Positions 54,112-59,774 of a DNA stretch of 64,000 nucleotides are shown piece by piece (the first letter of the stretch is position 1; the number at the start of each line of letters is the position of its first letter). Origin of the DNA: Hyphobacterium indicum (lineage in GTDB: Bacteria > Pseudomonadota > Alphaproteobacteria > Caulobacterales > Maricaulaceae); assembly GCF_003129605.1 (NCBI RefSeq), contig NZ_QBDX01000004.1, positions 496,001-560,000 on the forward strand, given 5' to 3'. The position numbers and the translations under genes were made by a program. Below the pieces are notes generated by a model, which searched no databases, was not told where the DNA came from, and saw nothing but the letters and a program-made list of their open reading frames with translations.

Positions 54112-54846
54112 ATGCTGACAGACAAGACGGTATTGATCACCGGCGCCTCCCGCGGCGTCGGCAAGGAAACGGCCCGCGCCTGCGCCAAGGCGGGGGCGAA
54201 AGTCATCCTCCATTTCAACGTCAATCAGGATGCCGCGATCAAGCTCGCAAAAGAGATTGATGCGGTTGGCTGCATTGCCGCCGACCTGTCGCAAAAGGGG
54301 GCGGCCGACCGGCTTTGGCTGCAGGCAAAAAACATGGCCGGAAAGGTCGATGCCCTGGTCAACAATGCGGGCGTCTACCGCGAAACACCGCTGCACAACG
54401 CGCAAAGCTGGGACCGGCACTGGATCGAGCAACTCCAAGTCAATATCATGGCCCCGTGCGAACTGATGCGCAACGCCATCAATGACTGGGGTTCAGGGGG
54501 CGGCGCCATCGTCAATATCGCATCCCGCGCCGCCTATCGCGGTGACGGGCCGGATCATGCCGGATATGCGGCGTCAAAAGCCGCGCTGGTCGCCGCATCC
54601 AAAACGCTGGCCCGGGCTCATGCCCACAACAATGCGCTGATCTACACGCTGACACCGGGCTGGATCGAGACCGACATGGCCCCCTCGCGGGTTGAAGCGC
54701 GCGCCGCCGCGGTCGCCGATATTCCGCTGGGACGGGTCGCCCAGCCGCAGGAGATCGCCGCCATGGCGGCCTTCCTTCTGTCCGGCCAGTGCGGATCGGC
54801 AACAGGTTCGGTGATCGACATCAATGGCGCGAGCTTTATGCGCTGA
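54112..54846 (+). CDS. SDR-family reductase (FabG-like)
   Basis: A 244-aa short-chain dehydrogenase with VLITGASRGVGKETARACA, LVNNAGVYRET, the Ser and YAASKAAL catalytic motifs and the end GSVIDINGASFMR. It starts 3 bases after the aldehyde dehydrogenase. It may act on a keto or hydroxy form of the same substrate. The 45-bp repeat starts 3 bases past its stop codon. A short C-terminal echo of an SDR gene lies at about 54949-54993. Confidence 0.92.
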   Translation: MLTDKTVLITGASRGVGKETARACAKAGAKVILHFNVNQDAAIKLAKEIDAVGCIAADLSQKGAADRLWLQAKNMAGKVDALVNNAGVYRETPLHNAQSWDRHWIEQLQVNIMAPCELMRNAINDWGSGGGAIVNIASRAAYRGDGPDHAGYAASKAALVAASKTLARAHAHNNALIYTLTPGWIETDMAPSRVEARAAAVADIPLGRVAQPQEIAAMAAFLLSGQCGSATGSVIDINGASFMR

Positions 54847-54849
54847 GCT

Positions 54850-54894
54850 GACTCCCCATCCGCGCAAACCCTGCTAGATTTCCTGTGAACGCCG
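54850..54894. repeat. 45-bp direct repeat, left copy
   Basis: Identical over 45 bases to 57387-57431, in the same orientation. It begins with GACTCCCCATCCGCGC and ends with GTGAACGCCG. The matching bases stop at both ends, so the boundaries are sharp. It follows the SDR stop by 3 bases. Confidence 0.95.
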
Positions 54895-55016
54895 ATATCG
54901 CAAATCCCCGTTCCACAATCAGCAGCATTGGTGTACTGGGTCGATTGAGTAGCGGTAGGCGAGATCACCGATATCAATGGTGCGAAGGACTAAATGGTAA
55001 ACCGTGTCGAGCTAAC

Positions 55017-55874
55017 ATGATGAGCGCACCGGCGGCAGAGTATGTCATCCGCAACTTTCAGAAGAAATCCATTTCCGGCTTGTATGCGCCAGGCATTTCT
55101 TATTCGGAAACCGATGGCTGCGCTTTCGAAAGTATAGCAGAGCGTTCGTCATTGCGGATTGTTTTCGACGGGCGATCAGATTTCGAATCGCAATGGGGGA
55201 AATGGAGCCTCAATCCCAACAATGCGGTTTTTATCGCCGCCGGCACAAGAAATTACAACTCAACGCCAAGCGGACGAAAGACCTGCGGCCTTTCCATTTA
55301 TTTTTCGGATGACGAGTTGTGCCCGGACTTGTTGAAAGGACTATCCGGCTCACCAATCCAGATGACGCGGGATTGGTTGGACGGTTGCGAAATTCAGATA
55401 AAACGCCTCTTAGAAATATCCGCATCACCCGATGGCCGCGTCAATGAAGCACGCCAGAATCAGGCCTGTATTGCGCGCGCCCTTCAGGACACGCTATTGG
55501 CCGAGTCAGAGCTTGCGGATCGGCTTGACGTCAAAAGGCCGACGACGCGCAAACGATTGACCGAGCAACTAAAGAACGCAAAATCAATCATTGATCAGAG
55601 AGCCGTTCGCGCGGTGAATCTGGACAGCGTCGCCGCAGATTGCGGGATGTCCAGATTTCATTTTACGACACTTTTTACGAGGGCATTCGGTACGTCTCCG
55701 CGGAATTATCACCTGTCACGCAGAATGTACCACGCCGCTGAACTCCTTACACATTTTCCCGTCTCGGATGTTGCTCACCAAGTCGGGTATAAAAATGTTT
55801 CGTCATTCTCCCGTGCCTTCAAGAATGTTCACGGCATATCGCCAATAAACTTCGCCCACGCGGATCAAAATTAA
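55017..55874 (+). CDS. AraC-family transcriptional regulator
   Basis: A 285-aa DNA-binding protein. The C-terminal AraC double helix-turn-helix (about 190-282) is clear: VNLDSVAADCGMSRFHFTTL, FGTSPRNYHLSRRMYHAAEL and VGYKNVSSFSRAFKNVHGIS. The N-terminal effector domain is not recognised. The frame is open further upstream to a GTG inside the repeat, but the ATG pair at 55017-55022 gives a more normal N-terminus. Codon use differs from the flanking operon, in keeping with transfer. Its stop abuts that of the S41 gene. Its targets are not known; the adjoining penicillin acylase or S41 genes are candidates. Confidence 0.85.
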   Translation: MMSAPAAEYVIRNFQKKSISGLYAPGISYSETDGCAFESIAERSSLRIVFDGRSDFESQWGKWSLNPNNAVFIAAGTRNYNSTPSGRKTCGLSIYFSDDELCPDLLKGLSGSPIQMTRDWLDGCEIQIKRLLEISASPDGRVNEARQNQACIARALQDTLLAESELADRLDVKRPTTRKRLTEQLKNAKSIIDQRAVRAVNLDSVAADCGMSRFHFTTLFTRAFGTSPRNYHLSRRMYHAAELLTHFPVSDVAHQVGYKNVSSFSRAFKNVHGISPINFAHADQN

Positions 55875-57275
55875 CTACCGCAACATTTCGAGAGCCCGAC
55901 CCATGGCGTCGTCCACCGGCACTTCGACTTCCGGCTCAACCCCATTTCCCTCGATCCGCTCACCATCCCGCGTGAAATAGTCAGCGACTGGAATCCTGAC
56001 CACATAACCCCCACCGGCATCAAAAAAACGGCTGGACAGCATTTCTCCCGCCGTCGTTTCACCGACAAGGGTGATATGATCGAATTCCCTGAGCGCTGCT
56101 GCCACCAATTCTGTCATGCTCGAAGAATGCGGCCCAATTAGAACGATTATTTCACCGTCGAACATAACCGGGGATGGTTGAATAGCGACGCCGAATATGG
56201 GCTCGCGCTCGACCTGCGCATAGAAATCATCCAATGTTCCGCCTTGCCATTCTGGTGCCGCTGATATCTGGCGAGCGGTGGGTGCATGATTGTTCTCCGC
56301 ATACCAATCGGCGGATACAAAAGCACCAACGGTTCCAGGAACCGGTGCCAAGTGGTTTGCTAATACGGCTCCAGCAGTAGAACCTCCGGAATTTGCTCGC
56401 AGATCAACAATCAATTTGTCAGCGCCAGACTCAATTATTTCGGCGAAAGCATCGTCTATTTGGCCGCCAATATGCTCACCCAGAAACGAATCTACTGTCA
56501 AAATCGCAATACCACCGTCGAATTCCAACGACAGGGCTTCACCCTGAACGCCTCGCGCGGCCCGAGATTGCAGCAAAGCATCAAGCCCGCCATCCGGTCG
56601 GTAGAGTTGAAAGTGCGAGAAGGGCATTACGGTTTCAGCGAACATATAGCCAATGGAAAAATCGAAATCATCCAGAGCCGCCATTGTCGCGGTATCGATT
56701 ATGGCCCTCGCCCGCTCGAATTCGTTGCCCGCAATGAGGCGTGGATCAAATAGATGTTGCTCCAACAAAACATCAATGCGGTCGCGTATATATGCATAGT
56801 CGCGCGCGAGCTGTTCACTTGTAATCCGCCCCGAAACATGGCCGGAAAAGGGATGCCCGTCGGCAACATCACCGACGATACTTTCACCGTCAAAACAGAC
56901 TCTTAAGCGACCGAACCCTGATCTCAAATTTCCCGTAAAACTTGCTAGACGCCCGGCATATATGTTTCCAGTTGGGCATTCGTCGGCAGAACGCCGGTGT
57001 TGATGGCGCACTTCCATAACCAGCAGGTCTCCCTCGGAAAACCAACTTCCTTGAGTGGGAAGCGTCGCCAAATAGGCAGACGAATTACTTCGGCTCCGCA
57101 ATTGCAGATTGTTACCATCTCGAACCACATCTAGCAACGCGGTCAATTCACCATAAGCAGATGTGGAGACCGTAAATTCAACTACTTGGCCATTTTCAAG
57201 TTCAGGACCATTGATTGTCGGTTCAGCGCATCCAACAACTCCGAGAAGCGCCAGACAAGTAATCATATATTTCAT
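55875..57275 (-). CDS. S41-family peptidase lipoprotein
   Basis: A 466-aa lipoprotein (lipobox VVGC, Cys14) with a C-terminal S41/tail-specific protease domain. Features seen are DKLIVDLRANSGGSTAGAVL, the serine region IGPHSSSMTELVAAAL and VGETTAGEMLSSRFFDAGGG. There is no clear PDZ domain; the N-terminal third is beta-rich and unrecognised. GGAGG precedes the ATG. It converges on the AraC gene without a base between the stops. Atypical base use and its place within the repeat-bounded segment suggest that it came with the AraC gene. Confidence 0.88.
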   Translation of the reverse strand: MKYMITCLALLGVVGCAEPTINGPELENGQVVEFTVSTSAYGELTALLDVVRDGNNLQLRSRSNSSAYLATLPTQGSWFSEGDLLVMEVRHQHRRSADECPTGNIYAGRLASFTGNLRSGFGRLRVCFDGESIVGDVADGHPFSGHVSGRITSEQLARDYAYIRDRIDVLLEQHLFDPRLIAGNEFERARAIIDTATMAALDDFDFSIGYMFAETVMPFSHFQLYRPDGGLDALLQSRAARGVQGEALSLEFDGGIAILTVDSFLGEHIGGQIDDAFAEIIESGADKLIVDLRANSGGSTAGAVLANHLAPVPGTVGAFVSADWYAENNHAPTARQISAAPEWQGGTLDDFYAQVEREPIFGVAIQPSPVMFDGEIIVLIGPHSSSMTELVAAALREFDHITLVGETTAGEMLSSRFFDAGGGYVVRIPVADYFTRDGERIEGNGVEPEVEVPVDDAMGRALEMLR

Positions 57276-57386
57276 AAATAGGCCTCCAATTTGGGGGCTT
57301 GATCGCCCACAAAAGAAGCGCAGCAAAGAGCAAGGCTGGATATTCGCAAAAAATGATAACTCCAGCTCCTTCCGTCGGGCATTAGC

Positions 57387-57431
57387 GACTCCCCATCCGC
57401 GCAAACCCTGCTAGATTTCCTGTGAACGCCG
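57387..57431. repeat. 45-bp direct repeat, right copy
   Basis: Identical to 54850-54894 over 45 bases. Here the sequence runs on into TTCACG, which completes the inverted repeat at 57422-57436. Confidence 0.95.
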
Positions 57432-57436
57432 TTCAC
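57422..57436. promoter_or_regulatory. Operator-like inverted repeat before the penicillin acylase gene
   Basis: GTGAAC-GCC-GTTCAC, perfect 6-base arms, 31 bases before the ATG. The left copy of the 45-bp repeat has only its first 10 bases. It matches the motif at 45670-45684 closely. Another pair, GAAACG (57437-57442) and CGTTTC (57462-57467), could fold around the G-rich ribosome-binding region. Confidence 0.5.
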
Positions 57437-57467
57437 GAAACGGGGGGACATCATTGGGGGACGTTTC

Positions 57468-59774
57468 ATGCGTTGGGTTATTCGCGGTATTGCGGCCATT
57501 CTCGGCCTTGGCATTCTGGTTGTGGCTGTGGGCCTCGGTTACGGCTATTGGCGCTTTTCCTCCTCCCTGCCGCGCACCGAAGGCACGGTCGAGGTCGCCG
57601 GGATTTCCGGTGAAGTGCAGATTGTCCGCGATGAATACGGCGTCCCGCATATTTTCGGCGGGACCGGCGAGGATATCTACTTCGCCATCGGCTATGCCCA
57701 CGCGCAGGATCGCTTCTTCCAGATGGACATGATGCGCCGCTATGTGCATGGCGAGCTTTCGGCCCTGCTCGGCCATCTCAATCCGGCCACCGTCACCGCA
57801 GACGCCCGTAGCCGCAATCGTGGCTATCATCTGGTGGCCAATGCCGCCGCTGAAAATCTCTCGCCGGAATTCCGCGGCGCGGCTGAGGCCTATGTGGCCG
57901 GCGTCAATGCCCGCCTCGCCGAAGGCCATTACCCGCCGGAATACCTGATCCTGCAAGCCACGCCGGAACCTTGGGAATTGCACGATTCCATGGCCGTTGT
58001 GGTCTACATGGCGGACAGTCTGGCCGCCGGAGAAGGCGAGGAAGTCGCCCGCCGCGAACTGGCTGAAATTCTTGATCCGGTTCAGCTGTCCGAATTCCTG
58101 CCGGCATATCCCGACTGGGCCCCCAACATGCTGCAGGCCGAGGATTTTGCGCCCGCGCCAGCACCGGTTGAGCCCACGACCGAAGCCCAGCCCGACTTTG
58201 ATGATGGCTCCAACGCCTGGGTCCTGTCCGGCGAGCATACCGCCACCGGCGAGCCCCTCCTGGCCAATGACCCGCATCTGGCGCTCGGCGCACCGGCCAT
58301 CTGGTATTTCGCCCGCCTCAACCTGCCGCAAGGCGCCGTTGTCGGCGCGACCATTGCCGGATCTCCGCTGGTTGTGCTGGGCCGCAACCAGGTCTCGGCC
58401 TGGGGTTTCACCAATACCGGCTTCGATGTCATCGACATGGTGCCACACGCGCCGGGAAGTCTGTCCACGACCGAGCGCGTCGAGGTGATCGAGGTCCGCG
58501 GCGGTGCCGATATTGCCATCACGATGCGCGATGCGGAAAACGGCCCCGTCCTCGACCCGGAATATTTCATTCTTGATGTCTTCGGGAACCAGGATGTGGT
58601 GCTGGTCTCGACCGCGTTGGATCGCTCCAACCAGGTCGCGAGCGTGTCATACAATCTGATGCTGTCGCAATCCTTTGACGAATTCGTCGCAGCCGGTGAG
58701 GGCTTCACGGCGCCCATGCAGAACATGCATTACGCTCATGTCGACGGAACAATCGGTTATACGACGCCCGGCCTGCTGCCCATCCGCGATGAGGACGGGA
58801 ACTGGACCGGCTATGTCCCCTATGAGGACCTGCCGCGCGTTGAAAACCCCGTCTCCGGCCGGATCGCCTCCGGCAATAACCGCATTGTTCCGGACAATTA
58901 TGGATACGATACGCCGGGCAGCTATGCGGCCTACCGGGCCATGCGCATCGAGGAACGCCTTGACGAGACCGATGCCCACACGCCTGACACTTTCCACGAT
59001 ATCCAGATGGACCAGGTCTCGGCCCAGATCCAGCGCATCCTGCCGGCCTTGACCGCCGCTTCACCGCAAACCGTTCAGGGTCAGCAGGCTCTGCAGCGCA
59101 TCCAGGGCTGGAATGGCGATATGGATGCCCTTCTGGCGGAACCGCTGATCTATTCGCTCTGGTATCGCGATATACAGGAAGGCATTTATGCCGACGAACT
59201 CGGGGATGATTTCCTGCGCCACCTCTCCACGCGCCGGGTCTTCACCGAAAATGTCCTCATCGGCGATGACGGGCATTGGTGCGACAATGTCACGACGGAC
59301 CCGGTTGAAACCTGCCCGGAGATACTGGGCGCGGCGCTGGATGCCGCCATGGCGCGGGGCATTGAAACCTACGGCCCGGACATTGCCAACTGGACCTGGG
59401 GCCAGGCCCACCAGGCCGTCTTCGATCACCCGGTCTTTACCGGCTCCGGCCTTCCGCTGCTCGAAGACTGGTTCACCGTGCGCCAGCCGGTGGGCGGCGA
59501 CAGCTCGACGGTGAATGTCGCGGTCTATTCGGTTCGCGCCGGATCGTTCGACGTGTTCCACGGCCCGTCCCTGCGCGCGATCTACGACCTTTCCGATCTG
59601 GACGCTTCGCGCTTCATGCATGCGCCCGGACAGTCCGGCCACCCCTGGTCGGACCACTATCGCGATCTGGCGCCCTTGTGGGCCGCCGGCGAGACGTTTG
59701 AAATGCGCACGGACTGGACACCGGAGAACGCACCGGAGGGCGCGCGCACTCTCACCCTGACACCCGCAAACTAG
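57468..59774 (+). CDS. Penicillin acylase family protein (Ntn hydrolase)
   Basis: A 768-aa periplasmic Ntn hydrolase made as a precursor. It has one N-terminal membrane helix or signal (IAAILGLGILVVAVGLG), the alpha part with VQIVRDEYGVPHIFGGT and HAQDRFFQMDMMRR, a linker, and the autocatalytic site GSNAWVLSG with Ser248 as the new beta-subunit N-terminus. Family members cleave penicillin G, acyl-homoserine lactones or other amides. GGGGGA precedes the ATG. It continues the direction of the SDR operon beyond the inserted segment and is followed by PhoD 10 bases on. The substrate is not known. Confidence 0.93.
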   Translation: MRWVIRGIAAILGLGILVVAVGLGYGYWRFSSSLPRTEGTVEVAGISGEVQIVRDEYGVPHIFGGTGEDIYFAIGYAHAQDRFFQMDMMRRYVHGELSALLGHLNPATVTADARSRNRGYHLVANAAAENLSPEFRGAAEAYVAGVNARLAEGHYPPEYLILQATPEPWELHDSMAVVVYMADSLAAGEGEEVARRELAEILDPVQLSEFLPAYPDWAPNMLQAEDFAPAPAPVEPTTEAQPDFDDGSNAWVLSGEHTATGEPLLANDPHLALGAPAIWYFARLNLPQGAVVGATIAGSPLVVLGRNQVSAWGFTNTGFDVIDMVPHAPGSLSTTERVEVIEVRGGADIAITMRDAENGPVLDPEYFILDVFGNQDVVLVSTALDRSNQVASVSYNLMLSQSFDEFVAAGEGFTAPMQNMHYAHVDGTIGYTTPGLLPIRDEDGNWTGYVPYEDLPRVENPVSGRIASGNNRIVPDNYGYDTPGSYAAYRAMRIEERLDETDAHTPDTFHDIQMDQVSAQIQRILPALTAASPQTVQGQQALQRIQGWNGDMDALLAEPLIYSLWYRDIQEGIYADELGDDFLRHLSTRRVFTENVLIGDDGHWCDNVTTDPVETCPEILGAALDAAMARGIETYGPDIANWTWGQAHQAVFDHPVFTGSGLPLLEDWFTVRQPVGGDSSTVNVAVYSVRAGSFDVFHGPSLRAIYDLSDLDASRFMHAPGQSGHPWSDHYRDLAPLWAAGETFEMRTDWTPENAPEGARTLTLTPAN

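What the first reader, a model, noticed from the sequence alone, without database searches (positions are those of the whole stretch)
54850..57431. 45-bp direct repeats bound an AraC-S41 segment splitting two operon-like genes
Two perfect 45-base copies lie 2.5 kb apart in the same orientation, with sharp ends. Between them lie an AraC regulator and an S41 lipoprotein with AT-richer, differently coded DNA, meeting stop to stop. The flanks (SDR and penicillin acylase) run in the same direction and read as one gene run if a single copy of the repeat is left. No integrase or transposase is seen, so either an unknown mobilisation route or a degenerate element is implied.
Basis: partly seen in the sequence, partly recalled or inferred. 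Interest (0 to 1): 0.7.

Follow-up and report, generated by a model that had tools for sequence, protein, structure and literature searches.

The report
Foreign two-gene insert with target duplication
A marine bacterium picked up a 2.5-kb foreign stretch with two genes between two of its own genes, and 45 bases of its own DNA were doubled at the joint; this is a real insertion into one lineage, but a small and probably fairly ordinary gene gain.

Summary
Two identical 45-bp copies (54850-54894, 57387-57431) bound 2,492 bp holding AraC (+) and S41 (-) genes that meet stop to stop; the genome has only these two matches at up to 3 mismatches. Three close relatives (G005, G006, G007) have the SDR-acylase junction with one copy and no insert; more distant G001 and G003 lack it too. 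The insert is foreign by composition (GC 0.513 against 0.610) and its DNA was not found in 59 relatives. So: a lineage-specific insertion with part of the acylase leader doubled. G004 has a different foreign gene at the same junction with a 13-bp repeat. In 670 kb aligned with G005, 37 one-sided indels of 200 bp or more were found; only this one and a tRNA-Gly insert have near-exact overlaps of 20 bp or more; nine mainly single-gene inserts read show target changes of -22 to +7 bp. No recombinase gene, terminal inverted repeats, or plasmid or phage DNA match was found; Ku is missing. I favour capture by illegitimate recombination (0.5) over an integrase-made cargo-only element (0.3). Mechanism is inferred, not shown.

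The parts
54112..54846 (+). SDR gene, left flank, intact
   Evidence: Pfam adh_short_C2 4.8e-40; 97% identical in G005
54850..54894 (+). direct repeat copy 1 (native position after the SDR stop)
   Evidence: one copy at the junction in G005 and G007 (identical) and in G006 (5 of 45 differ)
54895..57386 (.). foreign insert, 2,492 bp
   Evidence: absent from G005/G006/G007/G001/G003 junctions; no DNA match in 59 relatives; low GC
54958..54993 (+). SDR-3'-end-like word (GEITDINGAKD stop) near the insert's left end; suggestive only
   Evidence: nhmmer E 0.0025 within 2.5 kb but 1.3 over 1.2 Mb
55017..55874 (+). AraC-type regulator
   Evidence: Pfam HTH_18 1.9e-19
55875..57278 (-). S41 peptidase, probable lipoprotein (lipobox read by eye)
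   Evidence: Pfam Peptidase_S41 2.6e-27; other genomes' matches at E 1e-25 or better are 29-36% identical
57387..57431 (+). direct repeat copy 2 (leader of the acylase gene)
57422..57436 (.). palindrome GTGAACGCCGTTCAC, possible operator, whole only here
57468..59774 (+). penicillin acylase-family gene, right flank, intact
   Evidence: Pfam Penicil_amidase 1.8e-180

Best explanation
Shown: a 2,492-bp segment of foreign composition with AraC and S41 genes is present at the SDR-acylase junction of this genome and missing from five relatives, and 45 bp of the native acylase leader now stand on both sides. Inferred mechanism: foreign DNA was joined at two unrelated break points (template switching or repair synthesis during uptake); the right-hand joint lies 45 bp upstream of the left-hand one, so the stretch between was copied twice. 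The repeat is then a by-product, not a recognition site, and no mobility gene is needed. The acylase keeps its own leader; AraC may be read from the duplicated copy (untested).
For: Single-copy empty sites. Among ORFs of 100 aa or more the insert's two Pfam-scanned genes are AraC and S41; no Rfam family, no plasmid or phage DNA match. In 669,773 aligned bp, 37 one-sided indels of 200 bp or more; of 16 of the inserts that I read for ORFs, nine hold mainly one gene and have target changes -9, +7, -13, -16, -3, +4, -7, -22, -13, as expected of two independent joints. G004 shows a second event at the same junction with 13 bp doubled. The repeat is non-genic and 5 of its 45 bases differ in G006, so an incoming element would have little reason to carry it exactly.
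Against: 45 bp is an outlier against -22 to +13. A tRNA-Gly insert in the same genome, 1,110 bp with no integrase seen, also has a 45-bp repeat (44/45) and is clearly attachment-site-like. G004's SDR ends ASHVR while the copy right of its insert keeps the ASFMR end of G005-G007: incoming DNA that supplies a gene end is a mark of gene-end-targeting integrases. Ku is absent from this genome, so classical end joining is not available. Negative target changes may partly be plain divergence. The nine were chosen, not drawn at random; Pfam was run on one of them only (no family). A third genome was at hand for two: G007 also lacks the 593-bp one; at the 590-bp one G007 has an unrelated 944-bp insert.
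Confidence: 0.5

Rival explanations
1. Cargo-only attachment-site element (CIME-like): the 45-bp copies are attL and attR and a tyrosine integrase acting in trans, or since lost, put the segment in.
For: Repeat length lies in the 8-60 bp stated for tyrosine recombinases (PMC5704250, passages). The same genome has a 1.1-kb cargo without a seen integrase and with a 45-bp tRNA-Gly repeat and an integrase-bearing island with a 56-bp repeat at tRNA-Gly(gcc). The acylase leader is kept, as at such sites. G004's insert supplies an SDR end.
Against: Site is not a tRNA or conserved gene end; no integrase seen in the insert; best further match on the held part of contig C4, where one or two of the four recombinases lie, is 27/45; 0 viral contigs hold a 23-bp core exactly.
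Confidence: 0.3
2. Campbell-type homologous integration of a circular DNA that carried the same 45 bp.
For: Gives the same anatomy and needs only RecA (inference).
Against: Needs a circle with this 45 bp between foreign flanks; no DNA match among the plasmid and phage records.
Confidence: 0.1
3. Transposition with a 45-bp target duplication by a transposase in trans.
For: One copy in empty sites.
Against: No inverted pair at the two ends among the 25 of 39 pairs shown; end against end matches at best 39%; 45 bp is far beyond the usual 2-14 bp (recalled).
Confidence: 0.04
4. Ancestral segment lost from the relatives by recombination between the repeats.
For: Such a deletion would leave one copy.
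Against: Needs losses in the lineages of G005, G006, G007, G001 and G003; insert composition is foreign.
Confidence: 0.04

Closest known systems
CIME (cis-mobilizable element; PMC5704250, passages read)
   Same: direct repeats in att size range, cargo without integration or transfer genes seen
   Different: no related integrative element or att site found; site non-genic; function of repeats untested
Additive flexible genomic islands at a tRNA 3' end (PMC10872708, passages read)
   Same: small strain-specific cargo next to direct repeats, down to one gene
   Different: repeat here is not part of a tRNA; the tRNA-Gly insert at C4:394305-395414 fits better
Homology-facilitated or microhomology-based illegitimate capture of foreign DNA (recalled)
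   Same: no mobility genes, arbitrary joints, variable target change
   Different: 45-bp duplication is long; donor unknown

Membership tests
CIME / att-flanked element | attL and attR as direct repeats, single attB in empty sites | tested here: met
   (that the repeats work as att sites is not shown)
CIME / att-flanked element | related integrative element or integrase using the same site | tested here: inconclusive
   none found: whole genome at up to 3 mismatches, C4 to 1.2 Mb loosely, viral contigs with a 23-bp exact core; other contigs not searched loosely
CIME / att-flanked element | excision or mobilisation in presence of an integrase | not testable with these tools
   needs an experiment
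Insertion sequence or transposon | transposase | tested here: not met
   of ORFs of 100 aa or more only AraC and S41 have a Pfam family; a 114-aa ORF inside S41 on the other strand and shorter ORFs were not scanned
Insertion sequence or transposon | terminal inverted repeats | tested here: not met
   (25 of 39 pairs shown, none joins the two ends)
Illegitimate capture | foreign DNA, no fixed target change across events | tested here: inconclusive
   -22 to +45, but 45 is an outlier and the events compared were selected
Illegitimate capture by NHEJ | Ku protein | tested here: not met
   none in G000, G002, G004-G007; found in 7 of 35 genomes, G001 and G003 among them

The most novel reading that the evidence does not exclude
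Hyphobacterium-type bacteria gain single foreign genes at intergenic sites by a common machinery-free route that leaves a signed, variable target change (-22 to +45 bp); the 45-bp repeat here is the visible extreme, and some junctions, such as SDR-acylase (G000, G004) and C4:641.2 kb (G005, G007), are hit repeatedly, the former perhaps because incoming DNA anchors on SDR 3' ends.
Probability: 0.12. Interest if true: 0.6.

Novelty: new member of a known kind. Interest (0 to 1): 0.3.

Why it matters
It is a clean case, with empty sites in sister genomes, of foreign genes settling between two resident genes without any mobile-element gene seen, and with a second independent event at the same place in G004. 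Such pairs of filled and empty sites let one ask how single genes enter small marine genomes.

Tried and rejected
Donor search: S41 gave no relative in genome contigs (that tool finds close relatives only) and no match in plasmids; in 348 genomes of the order 25 match at E 1e-25 or better, own included, the others 29-36% identical. AraC: 7 of 348 at 1e-15, own included; 679 plasmid records hold a protein match, every best place under 60% identity (20 rows seen, 23-30%), 12 covering 80% or more, which reads as the wide AraC family and not as a donor. Apart from G000 only G206 passes both thresholds, the two genes about 880 kb apart on one contig, so the pair is not a unit in this set. Rfam at gathering threshold: none. 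Promoter and terminator scans were no richer than shuffles. SDR-tail word in the insert: a motif written after seeing it hits twice in 1.2 Mb, this word and the native SDR; a looser 13-base word with 2 mismatches is common, 17 and 23 hits on the two strands of 460 kb; the profile is weak. Left as suggestive. A first SDR profile held 10 of 24 rows from the wrong strand and was redone. G004's XRE, AraC and S41 had no match within about 1.5 kb downstream of 25 SDR copies read, other than in G004 and own genome, bar one S41 hit at E 0.77. Paper searches; one search had no hit; nothing on this locus in the listings seen.

Full report
Observation. The 45-bp direct repeat is real: 54850-54894 and 57387-57431, identical, and the only two matches in the genome with up to 3 mismatches. 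Between them lie AraC (55017-55874, +; HTH_18) and S41 (55875-57278, -; Peptidase_S41), meeting stop to stop. Insert GC is 0.513 against a mean of 0.610 in the 460 kb around it; 0.7% of equal windows are that low, and the other windows within 0.005 of it lie in one patch at C4 489.8-492.8 kb; GC3 is 0.56 and 0.48 against 0.72-0.77 in eight neighbours.

Empty sites. In 60 genomes searched (own included), the closest are G005 (acylase 96%), G007 (93%), G006 (92%) and G004 (84-87%, in two pieces). In G005 and G007 the SDR stop is followed by one copy, identical over all 45 bp, then the acylase; G006 has one copy with five differences; G001 and G003 have a short junction without insert. G002's best SDR match is only 34-35% identical and was not used. 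The insert as DNA was not found in the 59 relatives. Nucleotide identity to G005 is 94.7% left and 95.7% right of the site. Insertion in the G000 lineage is thus far simpler than repeated loss.

Anatomy. The repeat begins 3 bp after the SDR stop and ends within GTGAACGCCGTTCAC. The arms of this palindrome are kept in G001, G003, G005, G006 and G007 and lose one base in G004; in G001 and G003 the surroundings are quite unlike, so it may be an operator of the acylase. It is whole only at copy 2; in 460 kb of G000 and 400 kb of G007 the arms with three bases between occur once each. So the acylase keeps its leader, and copy 1 stands before AraC without the full palindrome.

A second event. In G004 the junction holds about 0.6 kb with one ORF of two XRE-type helix-turn-helix stretches (HTH_3 8e-19), starting at the SDR stop, GC 0.51 against 0.60 in the flank, and a 13-bp exact repeat CAATGGCGCGAGT in the SDR 3' end. 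Different gene, different break points, different duplication. The SDR before the insert ends ASHVR, the copy after it keeps ASFMR as in G005-G007; ASHVR ends also occur in G032 and G017. That a foreign SDR end came in with the gene fits an integrase that aims at gene ends as well as homologous pairing at the SDR end.

Survey. To see how unusual the repeat is, I aligned 669,773 bp of G000 contig C4 with nine G005 contigs. There are 37 one-sided indels of 200 bp or more (15 extra in G000, 22 extra in G005), besides 15 gaps open on both sides that were not scored. Three show overlaps of 20 bp or more: this one (45/45), a 1,110-bp insert at tRNA-Gly(ccc) (44/45, DUF6090 gene) and a 2,801-bp one with an imperfect 47-bp overlap (39/47 between its two ends by my count). 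The next largest is 11 bp. I read 16 selected inserts, not all 37, for ORFs: besides this one and the tRNA insert, nine hold mainly one gene of 125-301 aa, GC 0.435-0.564, with target changes of -22 to +7 bp; five are 263-268-bp units, some with inverted ends by eye. Negative values mean bases of the empty site that did not align and can include divergence. At C4 641.2 kb G005 and G007 carry unrelated inserts of 590 and 944 bp.

Mechanism. An integrase origin has real support: the repeat length is in the range quoted for tyrosine recombinases (8-60 bp, PMC5704250, passages), the tRNA-Gly insert shows cargo without a seen integrase but with such a repeat, and G004's insert supplies a gene end. 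Against it: the site is non-genic and varies in G006, no integrase gene is seen in the insert, no similar site turned up on the 1.2 Mb of C4 held (two of the four tyrosine recombinases lie on C1, one in the last 1.7 kb of C4 that was not held), and no viral contig holds the core exactly. Illegitimate capture explains absence of machinery, the scatter of target changes and the G004 event, but must accept 45 bp as an extreme value. Ku is absent, so joining would be Ku-free. I put these at 0.5 and 0.3. Neither is shown.

A weak lead. About 60 bp into the insert lies a word like the 3' end of an SDR gene (E 0.0025 in the insert, 1.3 in 1.2 Mb). With G004's repeat lying in the SDR 3' end this hints that incoming DNA may pair with SDR ends. 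No donor was found.

Verdict. Interest is modest.

Noticed in passing
L037 2214-2850 (G004 contig C39): Different foreign insert (double-XRE gene) at the same SDR-acylase junction with a 13-bp repeat; the SDR end before it differs from the one after it.
   Followed up: partly
G000:C4:394260-395459 (L154): 1,110-bp cargo with a DUF6090 gene and no integrase seen, at tRNA-Gly(ccc), flanked by a 45-bp repeat of the tRNA 3' end (44/45); G005 is empty. A similar-looking protein (by eye) also follows the SDR orthologue in G029 (L040).
   Followed up: partly
G000:C4:1135680-1146146 (L287, L288): 10.4-kb island at tRNA-Gly(gcc) with 56-bp repeats, a tyrosine integrase, Cas9 (1,072 aa), Cas1, Cas2 and a CRISPR array of 66-bp period: a CRISPR-Cas system on an integrase island.
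   Followed up: partly
C4:641.2 kb (G005 C1:3029-3618; G007 C1:1978424-1979367): The same point holds unrelated inserts of 590 bp in G005 and 944 bp in G007 and nothing in G000.
   Followed up: partly
G005 contigs C39, C22, C6: Strain-specific 263-268-bp units, some with inverted ends near CTAG-like targets by eye, possibly MITEs.
   Followed up: no
G000 C4 and G005 C39/C1: Nine mainly single-gene inserts of 0.4-1.1 kb, no mobility gene recognised by eye, between two genomes about 94% identical; Pfam was run on one only.
   Followed up: partly
54850-57536 junction, insert left out: These 150 bp are 94% identical to G007 and 76% to G006; other windows range 79-93% and 79-91%. Constraint or local exchange.
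   Followed up: no
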